From Candidatus Acetothermia bacterium (GTDB lineage Bacteria; Bipolaricaulota; Bipolaricaulia; Bipolaricaulales; Bipolaricaulaceae), in NCBI GenBank assembly GCA_003551325.1, contig PUMK01000102.1:1-16150 (forward strand): a stretch of DNA of 16,150 nt, read 5' to 3'. A model generated the notes under the pieces. The model searched no databases. It worked only from the letters and a program-made list of their open reading frames with translations, and had not been told where the DNA came from. Shown piece after piece: positions 2,847-12,548 of the stretch (position 1 is its first letter; every line of letters begins with the position of its first letter). Made by a program: the position numbers and the translations under genes.

Positions 2847-3689
2847 TCAATCCGCGATCGAATAGCCGCAGTGGGCTGTGATCACCCTCCCCGCTGATGT
2901 TAGCCCGCACAGCACAACCATCCCGGTTCCGGCTGGGCCGACCACCCGCACGCGTAGCGATGCTGATTGCCCCAGTGTCAGGCTACGACGATCGTAGATC
3001 TGCACTTCACCGTCGGTTCCGAAACCGATAAGCTCTACGCTAGCGGTCTCCTCGACGCCGAAGTGAATCGCCACCGAGAAGACCAGATCGTCATGCACGG
3101 ACTCCCGCCAGGGGACATAGGCGTCCCGGCCTGTCGACACATGGATCTGCCGGTGAACGTTCATCAGCTCAGTGAGGAACTCTTCTCTCGCTGGGATGCC
3201 CTCCGCGATGAGCAGGCGTCCCGACTGCAGAAGAACGTCCAGCGTGGATACAAGATCACGCTTCGGAACACCGAAGGTCAACCCGTTTCGCGTCACCTCG
3301 TTGCCTCCCGTGAAGATCACTACGGCAAGGCGGGCCGAGGCCAGTGCTGGTGTGTGTTTCATGGCCTCCCGCAGCATATCCCGCACTGGCCGCCCAACAC
3401 CTGTTCCATCCACCACAAGCTGCGCCAGGCAGCCTCTGCTGCTTCGGCGGACCTCGATGAGTCGGGCGATTAGATCGTTGACCACCTCCGTGTACGGCGT
3501 TCCGAGCCTGTACCGTTCAAGGGCGCGAAGGTGATAGAGGTCAAGGGTGCGTTGAGATCCTGTGTACTCCGCGGTGCGCACGGCACTACCCTCGTCAGCC
3601 TTTGGCACCCGCTCGAGGAGAGCAAGAGCCGTGGGGTCTTGCGCCTGCCCAAGATCACATCCCAGTATATAGCGCCGTACCCTGTTCAC
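2847..3689 (-). CDS. terminase large subunit, nuclease domain (separate gene)
   Basis: This 280-residue product is the RNase H-fold nuclease half of a phage large terminase, which cuts concatemeric DNA during packaging. Acidic residues sit in the expected order: D12 in YILGCDLGQAQD, D94 in LVVDGTGVGRP and D200/D201 in WRESVHDDLVFSVA. Start: GTG 3689 overlaps the TGA of the upstream ATPase gene as GTGA and has a GGGAGGG site just upstream, a clear translational-coupling arrangement; ATG 3734 is possible but less well placed. Residues about 216-280, after the last catalytic motif, form an extra strand-rich extension that I do not recognise and that is not usual for the family. In most phages this domain is fused to the ATPase; here it is in a different frame. 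No procapsid or portal gene follows. Confidence 0.85.
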   Translation of the reverse strand: MNRVRRYILGCDLGQAQDPTALALLERVPKADEGSAVRTAEYTGSQRTLDLYHLRALERYRLGTPYTEVVNDLIARLIEVRRSSRGCLAQLVVDGTGVGRPVRDMLREAMKHTPALASARLAVVIFTGGNEVTRNGLTFGVPKRDLVSTLDVLLQSGRLLIAEGIPAREEFLTELMNVHRQIHVSTGRDAYVPWRESVHDDLVFSVAIHFGVEETASVELIGFGTDGEVQIYDRRSLTLGQSASLRVRVVGPAGTGMVVLCGLTSAGRVITAHCGYSIAD

Positions 3690-4504
3690 GGTGCCCTCCC
3701 TGTCACCATGAGGTGAGGACTCGCTGTCTGCCATCGGAACGGCAGAACATCCGAGGACACCGCCTGCTCGAGGAGTTCCCGCTGGAATACGTGCCCTTCG
3801 GGCTCCGCAAATGCACACAGGTACTCCTGGCGGAACCACCAGTCTCCCAGGGTTGCACGCTCTTCGGCCAAGAACTCCGGCGTGATCCTCGGGCAGTCGG
3901 TGGCTTTGGCTTCGACCCGTTCCCAGAGGTCGCCACCCGAGGCCCAGGCTTCCCAGAAGTGCCCGCGCTGCCCAAACGGCGTCGCCATCAAGATCAACCT
4001 CCCCCCACTTACGGCCAGCATTGGGCGGATGGTGTAGTGAAGCGCATCGTCAACGCGGCTCGCTTCGTCCTCGATGATCAAGGATGCCCTGCTGTAGCCG
4101 CGGATAGTAGATTCCGATGACGGAAGCGAGACAACGCGGCTACCTGTCTTGAGCGTGAAGCTCGTGCGGTTGTCCTCCAGGAGCTTGGGCGGGATCGGAA
4201 GCTTCCCCAGGAGATCGGCCACCTTCCTGAACAGCTCGACGCTCTGCCGCAGCGAAGGACTGACCAGGAGGACAAGGGAGCCGGGCCAGTAGAGGGCCTG
4301 ATGAAGGGCAAGAATCGCCGCAACGGTGGACTTGCCTCCCTGACGATGTACGTTCAGAAGGAGGCGCCGGCCCGCCCACTGCAGCGCAGGTACCTGCCAA
4401 GGATCCAGTCTCTCAAAGCCCAGACTGCGGGCGAACCGCACCGGATCCAGTGCCATCCGGAGGTCGGCAGCGAGTTCAAGGCCACCCGATCTGCTATCGC
4501 GCAT
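3686..4504 (-). CDS. terminase large subunit, ATPase domain (separate gene)
   Basis: The product is the N-terminal packaging-motor ATPase half of a large terminase. It shows an adenine-binding-type region (LDPWQVPALQW), a Walker A variant LNVHRQGGKS, Walker B plus catalytic Glu in LIIEDEAS, and the coupling motif LILMATPFG, followed by the family hallmark WWFRQEYLCAF and a VFQRELLEQA stretch that normally leads into the nuclease domain. The frame then stops after GRAP. Start: ATG 4504 has GGAGG seven bases upstream and overlaps the small-terminase gene by 11 bp; an ATG at 4558 would lengthen the overlap and has less support. That gives 272 residues, about half of a usual 450-550-residue TerL, with the other half supplied by the overlapping gene. 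The motifs are intact, so it looks functional rather than decayed. Confidence 0.88.
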   Translation of the reverse strand: MRDSRSGGLELAADLRMALDPVRFARSLGFERLDPWQVPALQWAGRRLLLNVHRQGGKSTVAAILALHQALYWPGSLVLLVSPSLRQSVELFRKVADLLGKLPIPPKLLEDNRTSFTLKTGSRVVSLPSSESTIRGYSRASLIIEDEASRVDDALHYTIRPMLAVSGGRLILMATPFGQRGHFWEAWASGGDLWERVEAKATDCPRITPEFLAEERATLGDWWFRQEYLCAFAEPEGHVFQRELLEQAVSSDVLPFRWQTASPHLMVTGRAP

Positions 4505-4964
4505 CGAGGGCCTCCGCCAACGCCAATCGAGCCTCCGGATAGGGATCGAGGACATCAAGGATCACAGCCCGCAGGTCGATCCACGCCTGGTCAACGTGGA
4601 TGCTCACACTGGCCTCGCTGAGTTCACCCGCTACCTTGAGCAGGAGTTCGATGATCCGACTCTGTTCACGGATCGCAGACACCGCGGCTGAGTACGAGTC
4701 AGCTCGTTCAGCCTTCTGAGCAATCCTCTTGGCATCGGCCTGCAGGCTTCGGAGTTCCTCGAGGAGCCGGTCGGCCTCAGCCACCTGCCGGACCTCGTGC
4801 GCTTGGACCAAGGCCTCGGGCAGGTGATCAGCCTTATGTCGTAGCAGGGCTCCTGTGGATGTGCCGTAACGTTTCGCTATGTGTCGGAAGGGTTCCCCGG
4901 CCAAGAGAGCGGAATCGATCTTGGCCTGCTCTGGATGTGTGCAAATCGAGCATCGTCGCGGCAC
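4494..4964 (-). CDS. small-terminase-like DNA-binding protein
   Basis: This 156-residue protein begins MPRRCSICTHPEQ, a CxxC-H start often seen in a prophage family located just upstream of large terminases. A helix-turn-helix follows (about residues 20-45: IDSALLAGEPFRHIAKRYGT, then GALLRHKADH). A long charged helical stretch (about 55-115) then suggests oligomerisation, and the C-terminus is acidic. Small terminases form rings that recognise cos or pac DNA and hand it to TerL. The GTG start at 4964 is almost forced: an in-frame TGA lies two codons upstream, and an AAGGAGGGG site is about 10 bases away. The 3' end overlaps the ATPase gene by 11 bp, so the two are co-translated. The packaging role rests on fold and position rather than on a diagnostic motif; a transcriptional regulator is the alternative. 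Confidence 0.72.
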   Translation of the reverse strand: MPRRCSICTHPEQAKIDSALLAGEPFRHIAKRYGTSTGALLRHKADHLPEALVQAHEVRQVAEADRLLEELRSLQADAKRIAQKAERADSYSAAVSAIREQSRIIELLLKVAGELSEASVSIHVDQAWIDLRAVILDVLDPYPEARLALAEALDAR

Positions 4965-5294
4965 GGCTCATCCCCTCCTTCCGGCCAGTCCAGAAGCATC
5001 TGGCGCCATTGCTCCCAGGCCGGTACTCAAGTCTTGCTGCAGAGGGCACTCTCCCCATGCAGTTCCGGCACACGGAGGCCTCGCCCAGCATCTCTGGGTT
5101 TTCGCCTTGAGTCCCCTTACTCGTACCAAGGGCCCCTGCTGCCTCGCCCAATCCTCAAGCACCTATCACGCGCTCGCAAAGCCTCTGCTGCGGGCGTGAC
5201 ACACCTGCCCCCCTGATCATCGGTGCGGGGGGCCCTTGCCCGGCTCATCTAGCCCTTGACTCTCAACTCGCTACTGCTCAACAGGCTTTGCGTC
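4965..5294. other. 330-bp gap upstream of the small terminase gene
   Basis: This is the only large gap in an otherwise tightly packed minus-strand operon. It contains strong inverted repeats (listed separately) and a weak reading frame on the minus strand (ATG 5091 to a stop at 4834). That frame encodes a CRNCMGRVP..GARCFW stretch resembling the start of a small zinc ribbon, but it overlaps the small-terminase gene by about 130 bp, lacks a fourth ligand and has no good ribosome site, so it is not annotated as a gene. Promoter boxes for the packaging genes could lie here, but none stands out. Confidence 0.4.
5175..5292. repeat. nested inverted repeats upstream of terminase genes (candidate cos/pac)
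   Basis: CGCAAAGCCT at 5175-5184 is the exact reverse complement of AGGCTTTGCG at 5283-5292, 98 bases away. Inside lies GCCCCCC (5207-5213) facing GGGGGGC (5227-5233), a seven-pair all-G/C hairpin with a 13-base loop. There is no T-run on either strand, so it is not a normal terminator. Packaging recognition sites usually lie beside or within the small terminase gene, so this position suits a cos or pac site. A structured RNA or a regulatory site are other readings. Confidence 0.4.
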
Positions 5295-5795
5295 CTATTC
5301 GTCAGAGTTCTTGATCCTGTCTTCTGCTACTACATGCTGAATCCCTGATACGATCCCTATCCCTCTACAGAGCATGAAGCTGGGGGCATACCCAATGTCG
5401 ATGAACCTCAGCCAGTCTTCCTTGGTGAACTCATCCGTGCCCCGCCAGACATGTGGCTGATCAGCCAGCCATCCGGCGAGCGTCTCCGCGTCAGGACAAC
5501 TCGGGGATAGCGGACCACCCGTGTATGGAGATAGATCCATTGTATTTCTGACATCTTCCCATAATTGTAGCCTTACCTCGAAGGGAGACTCGTGCGGCTC
5601 CTTCAGAATGGCTAGCCATTCTACCTTGTCTGGACCGTGTGTTGGCATGTTGATATCGGTATGCTGTTTGGCCAGCCACTCCGCGAGGATCTCCAGGCTG
5701 GGGCAGGCCGGTGATAGTGGCACACCTCCCCATGGCGACCAGGTTGTGCCCTCAAGAGTGTTCTCCCACAACTGAAATCTGATCCCTAATCCCAT
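5295..5795 (-). CDS. phage-type hypothetical with two tandem QLWE/WLA domains
   Basis: The 166-residue product consists of two copies of one domain of about 68 residues. Copy 1 (about 4-72) has RFQLWE, then VPLSPACPSLEILAEWLAKQ, then KVEWLAIL and SPF. Copy 2 (about 73-140) has RLQLWE, GPLSPSCPDAETLAGWLADQ, EDWLRFI and APSFML. A short tail follows. From memory, single-copy relatives (xLWE..SEGSPISPVF..pEELAxWLAD) occur as uncharacterised small proteins in phages and plasmids; no biochemical role is known to me. ATG 5795 is chosen because GGAGGT lies six bases upstream; a GTG at 5810 is in frame but lies on the other side of that site. It sits between the replication and packaging genes of the element. 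Identification as a real gene is strong; function is unknown. Confidence 0.75.
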   Translation of the reverse strand: MGLGIRFQLWENTLEGTTWSPWGGVPLSPACPSLEILAEWLAKQHTDINMPTHGPDKVEWLAILKEPHESPFEVRLQLWEDVRNTMDLSPYTGGPLSPSCPDAETLAGWLADQPHVWRGTDEFTKEDWLRFIDIGYAPSFMLCRGIGIVSGIQHVVAEDRIKNSDE

Positions 5796-5814
5796 TGCGA
5801 CCTCCTTCACGAGC

Positions 5815-5931
5815 CTACTCCACTCGCGCTTGAGTGTGCCTGCTCCACCAACGGGGCAGAACTGGCTGTTGCTTCCCCTCGGCCATCGCTGCGCGCGCTA
5901 CCCCAAGGTGCGTGTACAGCGTAACCTCCAT
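5815..5931 (-). CDS. possible 38-residue small protein
   Basis: A short frame (ATG 5931, stop 5817-5815) fills the gap between the Cys-rich protein gene and the duplicated-domain gene and ends 20 bases before the latter's ATG. The product is basic with a Trp pair (MEVTLYTHLGVARAAMAEG, later RWWSRH). The ribosome site is weak, and the open frame extends further upstream without a standard start. No family was recognised. Its fit into a closely spaced operon is the main argument for it. Confidence 0.25.
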   Translation of the reverse strand: MEVTLYTHLGVARAAMAEGKQQPVLPRWWSRHTQARVE

Positions 5932-5966
5932 CCTAGGATCAATGCAGCCTCTCGCGATCAGCTTCC

Positions 5967-6218
5967 TCAGAACGGCACATCCTGAGTCCCGTTTGGCTCA
6001 GCATCATGGTGCTCACAGGCGCGCTGCCGCGGCATTGCCGCCCGCCGCCCCGGCAAGAGGCACAGATCATCGGCTCCTCGGTAGATGCACGTGTCACAGG
6101 CGCGCCCCGGAGGGCCGGGCTTCACGTGGGGGAGTAGGGGAGTGGGGCCTCTTCGCCCCTCAGGCTCGTCCCAGCGCGTCCTGGGCACTGTTCTTCCTAC
6201 ACCGGCAAGATCGCTCAC
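5967..6218 (-). CDS. 83-residue Cys/His-rich small protein
   Basis: The gene starts at GTG 6218, overlapping the TGA of the primase gene as GTGA, with a strong AGGAGGT site just upstream, so translation is coupled and the gene is very likely real. The N-terminal 40 residues are rich in Arg, Pro and Gly and probably unstructured. The C-terminal half has CDTC (C41, C44), then C53 and CEHH (C68, H70, H71), enough ligands for one zinc site. Small zinc proteins of this kind are common next to phage replication genes and may act as DNA-binding accessory factors or interaction modules; nothing here shows which. No close family was recognised. Confidence 0.68.
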   Translation of the reverse strand: MSDLAGVGRTVPRTRWDEPEGRRGPTPLLPHVKPGPPGRACDTCIYRGADDLCLLPGRRAAMPRQRACEHHDAEPNGTQDVPF

Positions 6219-8809
6219 ACCGCACCTCCTGGGTTGTCGCGGGGCAACTCCACCGCCGCTCCGGGGTTGGCGGTAACAGCATCTGACCCGCTTGACGTCC
6301 TGAATGCCTGCCCCCAGCTGAGGGCTGCGCAGTCAGCGCAGACTCCACCTTCGCTTACCCCCGGATCGGCCTTGTCGCATTCGGCACACCGGTACCAGGT
6401 GGCAGGATCGTCCGGATTGACCCCACGGGACTGTGCTTCCTCCTCAGAGGAGGGTGTCGGATCCGTCACACTGTCACAAGTGCCATCCAATAGACGTTCC
6501 GGAGCTCTTCCATCCGTCACGCGCTCTACATCTGTGACGGATCCTAACAGGCCTTTTATGCTCTCCTGAACAGAGTTGTGACGCTGTGACGGTTCGGCAT
6601 GGGGTAGGATGAGGGAGCAATCACTTTCGGTGGCTCCAACATACCGGGCGAATGCATCGGAAAACCATGATTGGTCGTATCCCTTGACGTTGACCTCGCC
6701 GTCCTTCCCTTGTATCCGAAGCGCCCGCGGGCGGATCCCGAACTGAGAGAGAAGCCTGGCGAGTCGGCGTTGTGTGATGGGGTTGCCTCTCCACCATTCG
6801 CCCCACGGACGATCCGTGAGGCTTACCAGAGCGTTCACCAGGTCGGCCGAGGAGATCCGGCTGACCTTCCGCTCCTCGAACACTTGAGCGATGTCCTGAA
6901 GCAGCATCACACCAGCACTGTCTTCATCCGACCCTTCTCGCCCAAGGCAGACGCACGCTCCTCGGGCACGAGCGGACCATTCTCCACCAACAAGATCGGC
7001 GATCGAAAGCAGCGGTCTCCAGTTGTCCGCAGCGCGATCGTGCAGCTCCGCGGGTATTACAGGATCACCATCACACAGTGCATCAACATGATCGTTGCTC
7101 CATCGCAGCGCTTGCCCGCGGATCTCGTCCAGGTAACCGAGGTGACTGCTTCGAAGGCGGCATACCTTCTCCCACTTCGTCTTTCGCCGGAGGCCGACTT
7201 GCACCGAGCGATCGGAAAGCGTCCCATGCTTCCCCGAGAGATCTCCGATGCAGGAGATCGCCTTCGCACCCCATGTGGAGAACCGACGAGGCTCATGGTC
7301 ATCGCCAACCAGCCGGATGACCCAAGCGGTTCGCCTTGAGTGCCCGCTGTTGACCATCCCGCGGAGATCATCGTCATCCTTCAGAAACGTGTCAGCTTCG
7401 TCGATTAGGAGCGTCGGTCGGTATTTCTCAAGGGCCCGGAACACCGCTGCTGCTGTGATGTTGGCACTGTGGAGCGGACGTGGAGTGAGTTGCCCAAGCA
7501 CGGTGAGAAGCGTGGTCTTGCCGCATCTCTTCTCGGGCGATGTGATCGCGAGAATCGGTGAGATCTCGAAGGCATCGTGCGTCCATGCGTGGACAACCCA
7601 CAACGCGATCATCACGGCCTGCTCAGGGGAAAGGACCACATAGCGTCGGATCACCCCTGCAATACGATCAAGAACCTGACAGCCGTCAACGGGGACAGGC
7701 CATGGCTCAAGCTCCGGCCAATCCAAAGCGGATCCAGAGACCAACTCCTCGTCCCTCTTGAACCTGAGCGCAGCGTCAACGAGACGAGCCGCGCGCTTCT
7801 CTCCACCTTCAGTCAGGATCCTGATCGCTTCCGCAGCGACTGCTTCCCGCGTCAAAGCGTCTGATCCGTGGAGAGAGTCCCGCAACAACCCGAGTGCCGC
7901 TCGTAGGTTCTTGTGATCGCGGTTCCCGTTGAGAGAAGCAAGTTCGCGAAGGGCTTCCGACGTGCCACAGTCCTTGCCACTCTCCTTGCCGGCGACGTAG
8001 CGAACGATCTCCTCGATCTCCTCTGATGGCTTCGGTGGCCTGCAGAGTCTCTCGTTGACCTCCATGAGCATGGCAAGCGCCGCGTTCTGGGGGATCCTGC
8101 AATCCTTGAGAAGATGTCCTGCCATGCGCACAAGTGTCGGGTGACGCTGGGACGGAACCAACTCCCCTTCCCAATCGATCGGCTCCATCTGCTCCGTCCG
8201 CGATTCCTCAACGATCCAGTCTGGGACAGGCGCGAAATCCACATCGGAGGGCGACAGCCCGTCGGCGAACTCGTAGGTTCCTCCATCCGGATGCTCACTC
8301 GGCGCGGCCATGATATAGCCGCCGATCGATTTTAACTCGAGTCCTGGATAGTTCTTCAGCTTCCCAGAAGGCAGCGTACCCCGGTAATAGCGATGAGAAC
8401 CCGGCACCCGCCTCTGGCCGTCACTGGCCTTCCCGGGTGTGAATGCCGTTGGGGTGATCGGTAGGTGCTTTCTCTCTTCCGCCAAGCGGGCGATCGAGTC
8501 TCTCCCTTCGGCTCCGTCTGCGTCAAGCACCACCAGGCCGCTAATCCCGCAGTTCACGCCGATGTTGGCGGTGGGGCGCTCTCCCCACCATCGCTTGATC
8601 TGCTCGGGATCTCGGGTGGCATCGTGAAGCCCCCGGGATCCTTTGAGCGGGACCTTTGTGCCCGGTGCCAGCGGGAAGACGTAGAGACCCCAAGAAGCAT
8701 AGTCCAGCGCACAAGCGAGGAGGTTGGTCGGACGACCGGGACCCTCGTGAGCAGCTGGCCCGTGCTCACCCTGGGTCTCCTCTTGGGTTGTGCACATCCT
8801 ATCCGTCAT
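6215..8809 (-). CDS. primase-polymerase fused to DUF3631-type helicase, C-terminal zinc ribbon
   Basis: This 864-residue replication protein has an N-terminal bifunctional primase/polymerase domain (about residues 30-205). The metal-binding pair is LVVLDADG (D96, D98), with SHRYYRG (H139) and ELKSIGGYIMAAPS after it. A PriCT-like helical region follows (about 220-275). A P-loop ATPase comes next, with Walker A SPEKRCGKTT (about 424-433) and Walker B TLLIDEAD (about 466-473), then a DUF3631 region ending near GYDQSWFSDAFARYV (725). A low-complexity linker and a CAEC..CADC ribbon (C808, C811, C824, C827) close the protein. Such fusions prime and unwind DNA at the origin of plasmids, phages and satellites. 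ATG 8809 overlaps the upstream regulator's stop as ATGA; GGAG and AAGGG lie upstream. The downstream gene starts on its stop as GTGA, so all three are coupled. Confidence 0.9.
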   Translation of the reverse strand: MTDRMCTTQEETQGEHGPAAHEGPGRPTNLLACALDYASWGLYVFPLAPGTKVPLKGSRGLHDATRDPEQIKRWWGERPTANIGVNCGISGLVVLDADGAEGRDSIARLAEERKHLPITPTAFTPGKASDGQRRVPGSHRYYRGTLPSGKLKNYPGLELKSIGGYIMAAPSEHPDGGTYEFADGLSPSDVDFAPVPDWIVEESRTEQMEPIDWEGELVPSQRHPTLVRMAGHLLKDCRIPQNAALAMLMEVNERLCRPPKPSEEIEEIVRYVAGKESGKDCGTSEALRELASLNGNRDHKNLRAALGLLRDSLHGSDALTREAVAAEAIRILTEGGEKRAARLVDAALRFKRDEELVSGSALDWPELEPWPVPVDGCQVLDRIAGVIRRYVVLSPEQAVMIALWVVHAWTHDAFEISPILAITSPEKRCGKTTLLTVLGQLTPRPLHSANITAAAVFRALEKYRPTLLIDEADTFLKDDDDLRGMVNSGHSRRTAWVIRLVGDDHEPRRFSTWGAKAISCIGDLSGKHGTLSDRSVQVGLRRKTKWEKVCRLRSSHLGYLDEIRGQALRWSNDHVDALCDGDPVIPAELHDRAADNWRPLLSIADLVGGEWSARARGACVCLGREGSDEDSAGVMLLQDIAQVFEERKVSRISSADLVNALVSLTDRPWGEWWRGNPITQRRLARLLSQFGIRPRALRIQGKDGEVNVKGYDQSWFSDAFARYVGATESDCSLILPHAEPSQRHNSVQESIKGLLGSVTDVERVTDGRAPERLLDGTCDSVTDPTPSSEEEAQSRGVNPDDPATWYRCAECDKADPGVSEGGVCADCAALSWGQAFRTSSGSDAVTANPGAAVELPRDNPGGAV
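6463..6592. repeat. cluster of GTGAC(G/A) repeats inside the primase gene (candidate origin iterons)
   Basis: Six copies of GTGAC or its complement occur in 130 bases: 6463-6469, 6472-6477, 6514-6520 (complement orientation), 6534-6540, 6578-6583 and 6586-6592. Two form a perfect 12-bp inverted repeat, GGATCCGTCACA (6459-6470) and TGTGACGGATCC (6533-6544). They fall in the linker between the DUF3631 domain and the zinc ribbon, where protein sequence is least constrained. Iterons near the 3' end of the initiator gene are typical of satellite origins. A repeated SVTD peptide could explain part of the pattern. Confidence 0.4.
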
Positions 8810-9006
8810 CTCTTGCCCTTCTCCTGTCCTTCTGGCCTATCGGTGCCGGACGCCTCCAGTGCGCGTACCACAAGCCGCGAGACCGGCACCCCCGTCTTCT
8901 CCGACTCCTCCCTCAACGCAATCCACAGGCGCACGGGGAGAGATACCGTTCCCGCTCGCCGCCGCTCCAGCTCGGAACCCAACAGCCCAAGCGTCGTGCT
9001 ATCCAT
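8806..9006 (-). CDS. ribbon-helix-helix regulator
   Basis: The product is 66 residues long from ATG 9006 (70 from the in-frame GTG at 9018). ATG is preferred because the AGAGGTG site lies about ten bases upstream of it but touches the GTG. The centre reads GTVSLPVRLWIALREESEKT, then VPVSRLVVRALEAS, the strand-helix-helix pattern of MetJ/Arc/CopG-type DNA-binding proteins, which dimerise and bind operators through the strand. It is the first gene of the minus-strand replication/packaging operon, and its stop overlaps the primase start as ATGA. It faces the plus-strand gene at 9073 across a 66-bp divergent region, so autorepression and control of the divergent promoters are likely. It could also be a plasmid-style copy-number regulator. 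Confidence 0.72.
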   Translation of the reverse strand: MDSTTLGLLGSELERRRAGTVSLPVRLWIALREESEKTGVPVSRLVVRALEASGTDRPEGQEKGKR

Positions 9007-9021
9007 CCTCGTCACCACCTC

Positions 9022-9063
9022 TTGACTTCACGCGACAAACATGCTACCGTACCAACAGGAGGT
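9022..9063 (+). promoter_or_regulatory. promoter and ribosome site for the plus-strand gene
   Basis: TTGACT (9022-9027) and TACCGT (9045-9050) are separated by exactly 17 bases, and an AGGAGGT site (9057-9063) sits nine bases before GTG 9073. The -10 match is modest, and the transcript would have almost no leader. The same 66-bp gap must also hold the minus-strand operon promoter, for which no convincing boxes were seen. Two GTGAC motifs (9073-9077 and 9085-9089) resembling the cluster in the primase gene lie just downstream. Confidence 0.4.
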
Positions 9064-9072
9064 CGTGTTGCT

Positions 9073-10251
9073 GTGACAGAACATGTGACGAAGGGGCGTT
9101 ATCTCCAACTGTGGGCCCCCTTCATAGCGCGAAGCTGGAGTGACTCCGCATGGAACCGCGACATCAACCGTGCCCAGCGGGCGTGGGCCGGGGAGATGCG
9201 CATGTGGCTTATCCCGGGATTGCAGGGGGAGCCACGCCGGTGGGCCGAGAGGATGGGCAACCTTAAGTTTCGCGAGGCTGCCGTTCCAAGTGAGACGTTC
9301 AACGTGATCGACATCATCCATGTCAGCCCCGGCGGATGGGCCTTCCCCTTCAGTAGAGCGTGGGGGCCTCAGCTGCGCGATGACCTGCTGCCGCTGTGGC
9401 TCAACGCGAAGCCCTTGACGTCCTTCTCGAGTCCTCCCGCGGTGACCATAAAGGTTCCAGTGTTCGGCGACGCTGAGGAAGGCACTCCTGTCGAGTACAT
9501 TGAGCAAACTCTCGACTTCGAGCCAGGTCCCGTTCTCCCATTCGCATGGGCCGACAGCAATGCGCAGACCGCGTACGCAGTATGGCCCCCCCCAGGGATC
9601 GGTCTGCCGACGCCCCCCATCAGCCCCGAGACGGAGAATCGAGAGCTGCCCAACCTGCCTTCAGATAGAAGCTCCCTTCCTGTCTACGTCTTCTGGGATG
9701 GACCATTCGGTGCCCTGTTCCCCATGGGGGCCACCACGGACCTGTTGTTTGAACACGCGGAGATGAGGCGGGCACACGCACTGCATTCGGAAGGAAGACG
9801 TCGGGAAGCCCTTGGGTTAGTGGAAGCCCGTCTGTCGATCCTGTTACATGACGGGGTGGAGAGCACCCGCGAACTCGCATGGTTTCTCCCCAGCCTTATG
9901 GAGTCGAGAAGCCAGGCGCTAGCAGACCTCCAACTAGGATTCGGACTGCGTTTCCCAGACAGGGATCTGGAGGAACTCAGTGATGCATTGGCTCACCCAA
10001 GATTCCGCGAGGTGATGGACGCCAAAGTCCAGGTGACCAGGGTGTTCGGTTGGGAAGGTCTTCTGTGGCTGAGCCTCCGGCAGTGCTTCGACGCATACAC
10101 CCACACGGGACTGTGTCCGTTCTGCGGAGCATCTCTTGTCGGGGGACGGATCGGCCGGGGGTGCCGCCGGGATGAGAACCCGAAGTGCGTAAAGGATAGA
10201 GCGGCCACCAGGAGACGAAAGAGCCGCCATTCGAAAGCCCCAAGCAAGTGA
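9073..10251 (+). CDS. unrecognised 392-residue protein with C-terminal zinc ribbon (element cargo)
   Basis: The start is GTG 9073, nine bases after AGGAGGT; the open frame extends much further upstream but there runs antisense to the regulator and primase genes. The N-terminal 160 residues are rich in Trp and aromatic residues with alternating strands. A Pro-rich linker (about 171-200: WPPPG, TPPISP) separates them from a helical region (about 222-340). The C-terminus has CPFC (C348, C351), C364 and C372, a zinc ribbon, then a basic tail (RAATRRRKSRHSK) suggesting nucleic-acid contact. I recognise no family and no catalytic motif. It is transcribed away from the replication operon, between the regulator and the recombinase, a position where satellites often carry interference or defence genes; that role is only a suggestion from location. 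Confidence 0.7.
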   Translation: MTEHVTKGRYLQLWAPFIARSWSDSAWNRDINRAQRAWAGEMRMWLIPGLQGEPRRWAERMGNLKFREAAVPSETFNVIDIIHVSPGGWAFPFSRAWGPQLRDDLLPLWLNAKPLTSFSSPPAVTIKVPVFGDAEEGTPVEYIEQTLDFEPGPVLPFAWADSNAQTAYAVWPPPGIGLPTPPISPETENRELPNLPSDRSSLPVYVFWDGPFGALFPMGATTDLLFEHAEMRRAHALHSEGRRREALGLVEARLSILLHDGVESTRELAWFLPSLMESRSQALADLQLGFGLRFPDRDLEELSDALAHPRFREVMDAKVQVTRVFGWEGLLWLSLRQCFDAYTHTGLCPFCGASLVGGRIGRGCRRDENPKCVKDRAATRRRKSRHSKAPSK

Positions 10252-10509
10252 CGGGACAAGCGGGGGCAAAGTCGCTGCTAGGTTGAATCACGCTCTTGCA
10301 CAGAATCTACCTCTCCTGACCCCTTTCCTCCCCGGACCCCCAAGAGAATCCCGCGACGAGATCTGCCCTTCCTGACTGCATCTGAAATCCTTCTGCGGGC
10401 GCGGTGCAATGACAATGATCATCCCCTGAGTCCCTTCGAGGACCCCTGGCTAGCAACTCGTCACAGATTGGGTCACATGCTAACGAAGGGCACCATCTGC
10501 TCTACGGTA
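10252..10509. other. non-coding region downstream of the cargo gene
   Basis: No convincing gene. The stretch from about 10305 to 10370 is pyrimidine-rich on the plus strand. No terminator with a T-run follows the cargo gene. Together with the structured leader just after it, this is a plausible home for regulatory or attachment sequence, but nothing specific can be shown. Confidence 0.3.
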
Positions 10510-10579
10510 GACATCGGTGAGACAGGACAATGGCGATGGTTCGTTCACCGATGTCGCCGGAACGAGATCCGGAGGCGTT
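10510..10579 (+). promoter_or_regulatory. double-hairpin leader ahead of the 10580 ORF
   Basis: GACATCGGTGA (10510-10520) is the exact reverse complement of TCACCGATGTC (10545-10555), with 24 bases between. Immediately after comes CCGGA (10557-10561) facing TCCGG (10568-10572). The second arm shares its last two bases with the GGAGG ribosome site (10571-10575) of the ATG at 10580, so folding could mask it. As DNA, the 46-bp outer repeat has the size and symmetry of a serine-integrase site or a dimeric operator. Confidence 0.45.
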
Positions 10580-10831
10580 ATGGGCATGGCCCTAGACTGC
10601 GGAGGCAACCTCAACCAGGTGCCCCTGTCGGGTCGATCCCGCTCATCCTCACAGCGGAAGCAAGTCTGTCCCGATGCCTGGGCCAAGGCGCTTGGGATCA
10701 ACACCGAAGATGAACGTCGGGAGACTACCGAGAACTTCATAGCCTATCTCTCGATCCTAAAGGAGTGGGACGAAGCCGATCGGTCAGATCAGAACTCTCC
10801 TCACCGGGTGACGGATCAGGGATCCAGTTGA
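10580..10831 (+). CDS. possible 83-residue protein upstream of the recombinase
   Basis: ATG 10580 has GGAGG four bases upstream and the frame ends at a TGA (10829-10831), 46 bp before the recombinase start on the same strand. The C-terminal half looks protein-like and helical (AWAKALGINTEDERRETTEN, then FIAYLSILKEWDEADR); the N-terminal part is Ser/Gly/Arg-rich and less convincing. No family was recognised. Small acidic, helical proteins next to integrases sometimes act as excision (directionality) factors, so this is a candidate, without sequence proof. An open frame on the opposite strand overlaps it, so coding status is uncertain. Confidence 0.42.
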   Translation: MGMALDCGGNLNQVPLSGRSRSSSQRKQVCPDAWAKALGINTEDERRETTENFIAYLSILKEWDEADRSDQNSPHRVTDQGSS

Positions 10832-10862
10832 TCCACCCACGATCGGTCCGTAGACTGACCGA
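10813..10862 (+). promoter_or_regulatory. inverted repeats just upstream of the recombinase gene
   Basis: GGATCA (10813-10818) faces TGATCC (10829-10834), and TCGGTC (10843-10848) faces GACCGA (10857-10862) with an eight-base loop. A GTGACGGATC copy of the primase-gene repeat lies at 10808-10817. The recombinase ribosome site (GGGAGGGG) follows at once. Operator or attenuator-type control of the recombinase is possible; no clear -35/-10 pair was seen. Confidence 0.3.
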
Positions 10863-10877
10863 GGGAGGGGCGAGATC

Positions 10878-12359
10878 ATGAAAAGGCGCTGCGTTTCCTA
10901 TATCCGGGTCTCTACGGCTGAACAGGCCTCGCACGGGCACTCCATCCAGGCCCAGCAGCAGATGCTGCGTGACTACGCCCTGGGTCATGAGTTCGAGATC
11001 GTCCATGAGTTCGTCGAGTCCGAATCTGCGTTCAAGCCGGGACGCCCGGAGTTCAAGGCCATGCTTACCTATCTCAAGCGCCATCGAGATGTTGCCGCCG
11101 TCCTTTGCTACAAGATCGACCGCCTGTACCGCAACATGCACGACTACGCCGAACTCGATGAGATGGACTGGGTCACCATCGTCTCTGCAACGGAAGGCCT
11201 TCCGGAGAACGCGACCGGGAAGCTCGTTGGGGTCATCCAAGCCGGCATGTCCAGGTTCTTCAGCCATCAGCTCAGTGAGCGGGTTTCTCTTGGGATGGAG
11301 ACGAAGGCCAAGCATGGTCTCTGGCCGTCCTATGCGCCTGTCGGGTACGTGAACCAGGGCCGAGGGGAAGGGATCGAACCTGATCCTGAGAGAGCAGATC
11401 TCGTTAGGGAGCTATTCAGGAAGTACGTCCACACGGGGATGACGCTGAACGAACTCACCGAGTGGGCCAGGAGGAAGGGTCTTCGCACCCGACAAGGAGG
11501 TTCACTGAGTCGGTCAGCGATCCACAAGCTCCTCAGCAACCCGATCTACATGGGCGTGATCCGCTGGCGTGGGACACAGTACCAGGGCACCCACGAGCCG
11601 CTCATCTCAGCGGAACTCTTCCAGCGCGCCCAGGACACGCTTCAAGGTCGGGGACACACGTGGACTGAACGAAGCTATCCCTACCGAGGACTCCTCCTTT
11701 GCGGTCGTTGCGGCTGCAAGATCACCGCCAGCCTGATCAAGGGCAAGTACGCCTACTACCACTGCACAGGAGCACGAGGCGGTTGCGATGTCCGCTATCT
11801 GAGGCAGGACCGCCTTGGCGAGGCGCTGGTGTCGGTCGTGAAGAACGTCCATCTCACCTCTGAACAGGTGCAGGCACTTCTTCAGGCCATGCACGACCGG
11901 CAAGGAGAGCGGGAGAAGGAGCGACAGCAGAAGTCACAGAAGCTCCAAGGCAGGCTCGAGAAGATCGTCAGGCGTCGGGAGGCGGCCTACGAGGACAAGC
12001 TCGATGGGAAACTCTCTGAGGATCGCTGGCTCGAGATGGACCAGAAGTGGTCCTGGGAGGAGATCCAGGTGCGCCACGAGATTGCTACCCTCGCCGATGA
12101 CCGGGGACCGTCCCTCGATGACGTTCAGGCTACTTTGGAACTCGTGAGACGCGCTCCCGAACTGTACTTGCGCCAGAACGACCAACAGAGGGCCCGACTG
12201 CTGAAAGTACTGGTTTGGAACTGCAAGCTGACGGGTGAAAGCATCGAACCTATCTACAGAACACCCTTCGACGTCGTGGCCGAAGGGCGTCACTCGAACA
12301 ACTGGTACGCCCGGGAGGACTCGAACCCATACCTCTCTGTACCAGGGGGCAACGTTTGA
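10878..12359 (+). CDS. large serine recombinase (integrase)
   Basis: The 493-residue product is a large serine recombinase that should cut and rejoin attachment sites through a 5'-phosphoserine link. The N-terminal resolvase domain has YIRVST with catalytic S12 next to R10, and KIDRLYRN carrying further active-site arginines (about residues 79-86). The recombinase domain follows (about 155-255, PVGYV to LFQRAQ). A zinc ribbon has C275, C278, C296 and C303 (LLLCGRCGCK, YYHCTGARGGC). A charged coiled coil runs from about 335 to 400. The length is near normal and no motif is missing. ATG 10878 has a GGGAGGGG site upstream. The last residues (WYAREDSNP) are encoded by a sequence that is antisense to a tRNA T-arm, typical of integrases whose 3' end overlaps the attachment site. 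It is the integration/excision enzyme of the element. Confidence 0.93.
   Translation: MKRRCVSYIRVSTAEQASHGHSIQAQQQMLRDYALGHEFEIVHEFVESESAFKPGRPEFKAMLTYLKRHRDVAAVLCYKIDRLYRNMHDYAELDEMDWVTIVSATEGLPENATGKLVGVIQAGMSRFFSHQLSERVSLGMETKAKHGLWPSYAPVGYVNQGRGEGIEPDPERADLVRELFRKYVHTGMTLNELTEWARRKGLRTRQGGSLSRSAIHKLLSNPIYMGVIRWRGTQYQGTHEPLISAELFQRAQDTLQGRGHTWTERSYPYRGLLLCGRCGCKITASLIKGKYAYYHCTGARGGCDVRYLRQDRLGEALVSVVKNVHLTSEQVQALLQAMHDRQGEREKERQQKSQKLQGRLEKIVRRREAAYEDKLDGKLSEDRWLEMDQKWSWEEIQVRHEIATLADDRGPSLDDVQATLELVRRAPELYLRQNDQQRARLLKVLVWNCKLTGESIEPIYRTPFDVVAEGRHSNNWYAREDSNPYLSVPGGNV
12302..12345 (-). other. candidate attachment site at the 3' end of the recombinase gene
   Basis: CTGGTAC (12302-12308) and GTACCAG (12339-12345) form a perfect 7-bp inverted repeat around 30 bases, with an inner GAGG/CCTC pair. 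Read on the minus strand, the centre GGTTCGAGTCC matches the T-loop consensus of tRNAs (TTCRANY) and is followed by CCCGGGCGTACCA, like a tRNA 3' end. The flanking minus-strand sequence cannot be folded into a whole tRNA: the putative T-stem has mismatches and no partner acceptor strand was found. It is a likely att half derived from a tRNA gene, but no second copy was seen in the window. Confidence 0.42.
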
Positions 12360-12548
12360 GAACCCGCTTTGCGTGCGCTGTTTGATCGGTTCTGAGGTCT
12401 TCCCCTCACCACGCTTCCAGGTGATGCTCACCCGTGAAGTCCTCCATTCGGTCCGGTTGCCTCCACCAATGGCCATCAGCAAGTGAGCAGATGCTCAGAA
12501 CCACTCCCGCCGGCCGCGTGCGCCGCGCTGCGCAGTGGTGTCTCCAGG
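12360..12548. other. gap between recombinase and LRR gene
   Basis: There is no gene here. AGAACC (12359-12364) faces GGTTCT (12388-12393) directly after the recombinase stop. Further on, an ACCACT/AGTGGT pair encloses a very GC-rich stretch near the LRR gene's 3' end. Neither is followed by a T-run. The chromosome/element junction probably lies near the left end of this gap. Confidence 0.3.

What the first reader, a model, noticed from the sequence alone, without database searches (positions are those of the whole stretch)
2847..12359. Compact element with integrase, primase-polymerase and terminases but no capsid genes: candidate phage satellite
Seen: serine recombinase, RHH regulator, prim-pol/DUF3631 protein, TerS-like protein and TerL in about 9.5 kb, in the order int / divergent control / replication / packaging. 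No portal, capsid, tail or lysis gene was seen. Known: PICI, cfPICI and P4-type satellites share this plan and borrow capsids from a helper. Most such elements carry TerS alone, so carrying both TerS and TerL with no capsid gene would be unusual. Inference: a new satellite type, possibly in a poorly known phylum; a deleted prophage is the main alternative.
Basis: partly seen in the sequence, partly recalled or inferred. Interest (0 to 1): 0.85.

Follow-up and report, generated by a model that had tools for sequence, protein, structure and literature searches.

The report
Capsid-less phage-satellite-like element with full terminase
This stretch of an uncultured bacterium's genome carries genes to insert, copy and package its own DNA but none that we recognise for building a virus shell, and similar small elements occur in other bacteria and archaea, so it looks like a virus parasite that brings its own DNA-packaging motor and borrows shells from another virus.

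Summary
Window 2847-12359 encodes a TerS-like protein, a large terminase split into two coupled genes (ATPase, nuclease), PrimPol-DUF3631, an RHH regulator and a large serine recombinase; no virion gene was recognised among the main ORFs. TerL_A homologues also sit on complete plasmids of cultured bacteria. TerL in such relatives shows low dN/dS. Against: the same split TerL occurs in phages with portals, and the TerL tree does not separate them; the window's left end is unresolved; its right end is a tRNA-Arg fragment abutting what looks like a second element; in its phylum only its own genome and one partial match of 100 have this TerL. Mobility, helper and packaging are inferred. Verdict: new variant of a known kind.

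The parts
2847..3689 (-). TerL_N: terminase nuclease (RNase H-like) as its own gene
   Evidence: phrog_27743 3.5e-33; D of GxDxG, D of DxTGVG and HDD kept in 95-99% of 113 aligned proteins; GTG start overlaps the TerL_A stop by 4 nt
3686..4558 (-). TerL_A: terminase ATPase as its own gene
   Evidence: phrog_7579 9.1e-56, PF03237 5.4e-5; RQxGKST, DE and TP motifs invariant in 22 aligned sequences, the window among them
4494..4964 (-). TerS-like protein: CxxC/H motif, HTH, helical hairpin
   Evidence: BLAST relatives in 76 of 174 sequences, 3 of them the window and its own copies; within 300 bp upstream of TerL_A in 69 of 151 cases; alignment, model; assignment by position and architecture
5295..5810 (-). 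Duplicated QLWE-domain protein, function unknown
   Evidence: ORF; no relative among fetched loci
5967..6218 (-). Small Cys-rich protein
   Evidence: ORF; no family match
6215..8809 (-). PrimPol-PriCT-DUF3631 replication protein
   Evidence: PF09250 1.1e-34, PF12307 1.1e-44; 1559 of 7993 scored candidates related
8806..9018 (-). Ribbon-helix-helix regulator
   Evidence: RHH_3 4.2e-4, just under the curated cut-off
9067..10251 (+). ORFX: protein with a C-terminal Cys motif, also found next to a related recombinase in G017
   Evidence: 37-40% identity in G017:C233; 2 of 40 family genomes, own included
10517..10831 (+). Small ORF between ORFX and recombinase
   Evidence: ORF; a similar-looking ORF at the same place in G017:C233
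10878..12359 (+). Large serine recombinase (integrase)
   Evidence: PF00239 1.6e-24, PF07508 1.5e-19, phrog_95 2.8e-84
12302..12327 (-). 3' end of tRNA-Arg(CCT): likely att core, inside the recombinase 3' end
   Evidence: 24-26 bp identical to intact tRNA-Arg(CCT) genes of relatives
12328..12464 (.). Continues a match (12305-12464, 82.5%) to the left end of an element in G017:C233: likely junction to a second element

Best explanation
A member of a widespread class of small integrative (sometimes plasmid-borne) elements that behave as phage satellites: the recombinase inserts the element at a tRNA 3' end, the PrimPol-helicase copies it once induced, and its own TerS, TerL ATPase and TerL nuclease select and cut its DNA and pump it through the portal of procapsids made by an unknown helper phage. 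Shown: gene content, intact motifs, low dN/dS in relatives, tRNA-bounded and circular relatives. Inferred: induction, helper, packaging, transfer.
For: The TerL cassette with integrase and no recognised portal or capsid gene lies between 44-56 bp tRNA-end repeats at L018 (10.5 kb), L026 (10.1 kb, isolate), L037 (10.0 kb), L039 (14.3 kb), L051 (12.0 kb) and L119 (9.0 kb). Replication genes there: primase-related in L026, L039, L051, RepA-helicase-related in L037 (2.6e-8), weak primase/helicase match in L119, unassigned in L018. Positive control: the same kind of PHROG scan finds portals and major head proteins in other loci. TerL_A dN/dS 0.07-0.28 in six pairs, TerL_N 0.11-0.16 in six, TerS 0.07-0.15 in three. 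Terminal repeats of 127 bp mark L126 (no capsid match among three proteins tested) as circular. TerL_A homologues on complete plasmids. No PF04860 or PF05065 match in the own genome.
Against: Window left end not found; no second copy of the core in the window or the abutting contig C224. The int side is not joined to an intact tRNA. One full TerL in 100 phylum genomes, its own. The same split TerL occurs beside portal-type genes and the TerL tree intermingles them. Circular-looking L155 and L109 do carry head genes. Int dN/dS was 0.06 in one pair but 0.44 in another, very distant pair. Genes were called by longest ORF, so some scanned ORFs are spurious and real ones may be missed (L018's TerL_A was), and family lists were cut at 25. 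No evidence of packaging or induction.
Confidence: 0.65

Rival explanations
1. A prophage remnant: the structural block was deleted and integrase, replication and terminase genes linger.
For: In this phylum found once in full; left end not found; the cassette belongs to phages too; a repeated stretch at about 418-634 looks like a truncated IS3-type transposase start (reading mine).
Against: All main frames are open; independent copies without recognised capsid genes between tRNA repeats in several phyla; low dN/dS of TerS and TerL in relatives, though selection on this copy itself was not measured.
Confidence: 0.18
2. A domesticated or plasmid-type element that uses the terminase ATPase/nuclease for something other than filling capsids (copy resolution, defence, DNA transfer).
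For: TerL_A homologues on plasmids typed as non-mobilizable, three of them with ParA; no helper known.
Against: ATPase and nuclease keep their motifs; relatives with a similar backbone add portal, head or tape-measure genes, which points to virions.
Confidence: 0.1
3. Incomplete contig: the capsid genes of a full prophage lie outside the 16 kb contig.
For: The window is the whole contig C202 of a 58% complete genome; the element's left end is not mapped.
Against: Contig C224, joined to the left end by a 121 bp overlap, carries floA; the right side carries a transporter gene conserved in relatives; no PF04860 or PF05065 match in the assembly, itself incomplete.
Confidence: 0.07

Closest known systems
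cfPICI (capsid-forming phage-inducible chromosomal islands)
   Same: satellite with its own small and large terminase subunits (passages of PMC10690885)
   Different: cfPICIs encode major capsid protein, protease, portal and connectors; none recognised here
PICI / SaPI
   Same: int, control genes, replication, often TerS, no capsid genes (passages of PMC10690885; gene order recalled)
   Different: TerS without TerL; here TerL is present and split in two genes
PICMI (Vibrionaceae minimalist satellites)
   Same: int, regulator, primase, no capsid-remodelling genes (passages of PMC10803314)
   Different: the authors found no terS homologue; AlpA and Fis genes define PICMI and were not found here
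Pseudomonas satellite AH14b
   Same: 16.8 kb, integrase, primase, helicase, no structural genes (passages of PMC4936722)
   Different: its authors found no terminase gene
Thermus/Meiothermus phages Riverbug and MMP17/MMP7
   Same: most similar TerL among phage records, 45-46%
   Different: single-chain TerL with portal, capsid and tail genes downstream (Riverbug and MMP17)

Membership tests
PICI | integrase plus divergent control and primase/replication genes | tested here: met
PICI | no capsid, portal or tail genes | tested here: met
   none recognised among the main window ORFs
PICI | TerS without TerL | tested here: not met
   TerL ATPase and nuclease genes present
PICI | induced and packaged by a helper phage | not testable with these tools
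   needs experiment
cfPICI | own capsid, portal and connectors | tested here: not met
cfPICI | own TerS and TerL | tested here: met
   TerS by position and architecture only
PICMI | int, AlpA, primase (DUF3987/DUF5906) and Fis genes | tested here: not met
   int found, primase of another type (PrimPol-DUF3631); no AlpA or Fis match
P4-like | P4-type primase and capsid factors Psu/Sid, helper terminase (partly recalled) | tested here: not met
   PrimPol-DUF3631 and own TerL instead
VEIME | DNA recovered from virions | not tested
   no virion reads; defining paper not read (recalled)
Caudoviricetes prophage | portal and HK97-type capsid genes next to terL | tested here: not met
   none in the own assembly by PF04860 and PF05065

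The most novel reading that the evidence does not exclude
A cross-domain lineage of satellites that is autonomous in packaging but not in particle building: each brings a three-gene terminase and docks it on a helper's portal, and related backbones gain or lose single virion genes (portal and head genes in a 9.9 kb circular-looking contig, a tape-measure-like gene alone on Salinibacter and Rhodococcus plasmids and in a methanogen), forming a continuum between plasmids, satellites and phages.
Probability: 0.42. Interest if true: 0.85.

Novelty: new variant of a known kind. Interest (0 to 1): 0.7.

Why it matters
The satellites described in the passages read either use the helper's TerL or make their own capsid. 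A class that brings its whole packaging motor but no shell would mean that a satellite's TerL must fit a foreign portal, which would set its helper range and can be tested directly. It would extend capsid-less satellites to methanogens and little-known phyla and offer an explanation for terminase genes on small plasmids of cultured bacteria.

Tried and rejected
Left boundary: looked for a second copy of the tRNA core in the window and in contig C224; best other matches 20 of 34 and 18 of 34 bases, i.e. nothing. Empty site: 40 family genomes searched with the right flank and 40 with the left 900 bases; intact tRNA-Arg(CCT) genes found, no locus with both window flanks. TerL tree: does not separate satellites from phages; 132 of 193 rows had no label, and the 'portal' labels were my judgement from clusters and gene lengths, not a scan. 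TerS fold against PDB: no match at E 0.001 or better; the viral library gave one (2e-4, uncharacterised) and several weak rows named terminase small subunit. My own portal/capsid profiles undercount, because PHROGs found portals in loci they missed, so one search counts are not used. Alignment-wide scans list only 25 families (25 of 84, 25 of 28, 25 of 99, 25 of 110, 25 of 74), so eleven larger proteins of the eight bounded elements were scanned singly. The att search favours small elements because loci hold at most 10 kb flanks. L018, L051 and L037 replication genes against PDB sequences: only L037 matched (RepA). Portal and capsid matches in three host genomes were checked for nearness: they lie on contigs of other lengths than those of L030, L032 and L051, so not beside the elements. 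Literature: searches listed no paper that, from title and abstract start, is about a capsid-less element with TerS and split TerL; only listings and the passages named in the report were seen.

Full report
What is there. The window is the whole contig C202 of a 58% complete, 1.83 Mb assembly. From left to right: TerL nuclease, TerL ATPase, TerS-like, two small proteins of unknown function, PrimPol-DUF3631, RHH (all minus strand), then on the plus strand ORFX, a small ORF and a large serine recombinase. No virion family other than terminase matched the main ORFs. The flanks are a WD40/PKD protein on the left and, on the right, an LRR protein and a GPR1/FUN34/YaaH transporter gene, the latter 72-87% identical at DNA level in relatives. 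A 121 bp overlap joins the left end to contig C224 with floA.

The split terminase is real. The TGA of TerL_A overlaps the GTG of TerL_N by four bases behind AGGGAGG. The Walker A, DE and TP motifs are invariant in 22 aligned sequences including the window; the acidic residues expected of an RNase H-like nuclease are kept in 95-99% of 113 aligned TerL_N. That these are catalytic is from knowledge of terminases. 5263 of 7999 scored candidates matched TerL_A at E 0.001 or better; the 120 listed are 248-275 residues long, too short for an ATPase-nuclease fusion, so separate ATPase genes are the rule among the closest relatives.

The right end. The recombinase gene runs into a 24-26 bp stretch identical to the 3' end of tRNA-Arg(CCT) genes of relatives. 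Two related recombinases, one in the same genome beside tRNA-Asn and one in G001 beside tRNA-Arg, overlap intact tRNAs in the same way. In the window the tRNA is not completed; instead 12305-12464 is 82.5% identical to a place in G017 where the core is followed by ORFX and the start of a related recombinase, cut by the contig end. The simplest reading is two elements in tandem at one tRNA end, the second decayed; that is inference. The left end was not found.

Relatives. A scan of species genomes returned 80 loci (best of 129 relatives), one of viral contigs 80 (best of 222). By BLAST, TerS relatives lie in 76, TerL_N in 121 and TerL_A in 152 of 174 sequences, the window and its own copies among them (73, 119 and 150 without). 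The set is mixed: many viral contigs have portal-type genes downstream, and PHROGs find portals and major head proteins among 73 downstream proteins of less similar genome loci. But at six loci, repeats of a tRNA end bracket the cassette: L018 tRNA-Val 51 bp, L026 tRNA-Lys 50, L037 tRNA-Met 44, L039 tRNA-Leu 56, L051 tRNA-Thr 45, L119 tRNA-Met 46. L032 (21 bp) and L030 (17 bp), both archaeal, have weaker repeats. In these eight, 84 ORFs other than called terminase and integrase genes were scanned: Pfam gave 28 families, 25 shown, none structural; PHROGs gave 84, 25 shown, none structural. Eleven larger ones scanned singly gave no portal or head protein; L030 has a tail-fibre-like protein (3.5e-10) and L032 a weak tape-measure match (0.0039). 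Replication genes are primase-related in L026, L039 and L051, RepA-helicase-related in L037, weakly primase/helicase-like in L119 and unassigned in L018. A wider set of 86 proteins, 50 of them from behind the cassette at 15 further loci, matched mostly cellular Pfam families among the 25 of 74 shown, with one phage tail family; the one tail protein found singly is in L025, whose tape-measure protein scores 2.6e-119.

Selection. Among pairs of relatives in which no portal had been seen, finite TerL_A dN/dS values were 0.079, 0.067, 0.280, 0.120, 0.226 and 0.088; TerL_N 0.125, 0.162, 0.112, 0.128, 0.157 and 0.136; TerS 0.073, 0.149 and 0.120; int 0.059 and, for one very distant pair, 0.443. Pairs with saturated synonymous sites, missing genes or identical sequences were left out, and several dS values exceed 1, so the ratios are rough. 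Not all of these loci are bounded on both sides. Low values speak against neutral decay of the family.

Free forms. Viral contigs L109 (8.9 kb), L126 (12.5 kb) and L155 (9.9 kb) have 119-127 bp terminal repeats, as circular molecules do; L097 has 32 bp. L155 carries portal and major head genes and split TerL; L109 an integrase, a primase, TerS, split TerL and one head-like gene; in L126 three proteins tested gave no capsid match. The plasmid collection gave 8 records, among them S. ruber pSR11 (11.2 kb), pSR14 and pSR31, two S. virginiae plasmids and Rhodococcus pDJL3, whose terminase is one product of about 490 residues by its coordinates. Ten proteins of four of these plasmids were scanned: pSR11, pSR14 and pDJL3 each have a tape-measure-like protein, and no portal or major head protein matched. 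The S. ruber genome paper mentions terminases on small plasmids; the passages seen give no satellite reading (PMC6060240).

Helpers. Phage_portal matched 2 of 10 host genomes (one over the cut-off) and Phage_capsid 2 of 10 (one over the cut-off), the window's own genome in neither; other portal and capsid families were not searched. In L030's genome weak matches to both families lie about 4 kb apart, a possible helper prophage.

Against known kinds. Passages of PMC10690885, PMC10803314, PMC11389934 and PMC4936722 describe SaPI/PICI (TerS in some), cfPICI (TerS, TerL and capsid), PICMI (no terS found) and AH14b (no terminase found). None of these has TerS plus TerL without capsid. Eight literature searches listed no such element, but most subscription papers, the VEIME paper probably among them, are not held.

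Conclusion. The element most likely works as a satellite that packages itself with its own terminase into a helper's shells. The family-level case is good; the case for this single copy being mobile is weak.

Noticed in passing
L155:1-9929: A circular-looking 9.9 kb viral contig with primase, portal (phrog_533 9.7e-37), major head protein (phrog_267 5e-60) and split TerL; L137 has the same gene order.
   Followed up: partly
L260:7132-9018, L261:9641-11467, L263:2571-6890, L025:9742-12468: Tape-measure-like protein near the terminase cassette, with no portal or capsid match among the proteins scanned there.
   Followed up: partly
L109:7516-8775: Circular-looking 8.9 kb contig with integrase, primase, TerS, split TerL and one head-protein-like gene (phrog_10 1.7e-21).
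   Followed up: partly
L218:79-4171: Related serine recombinase in the same genome, overlapping tRNA-Asn, near a type IV coupling-protein-like ATPase (TrwB_AAD_bind 3.7e-10).
   Followed up: partly
L217:289-9048: HD-CE/HEAT and FRG-domain proteins left of the G017 recombinase element; may be a defence-like island.
   Followed up: no
418-634: Stretch repeated in relatives (71-90% identity) that reads like a truncated IS3-type transposase start.
   Followed up: no
L035 and L039: Two loci of one Bacillota assembly hold cassettes with 82% identical TerL_A.
   Followed up: no
L274:1-19001: Weak portal and capsid matches about 4 kb apart in the genome that holds L030: possible helper prophage.
   Followed up: no
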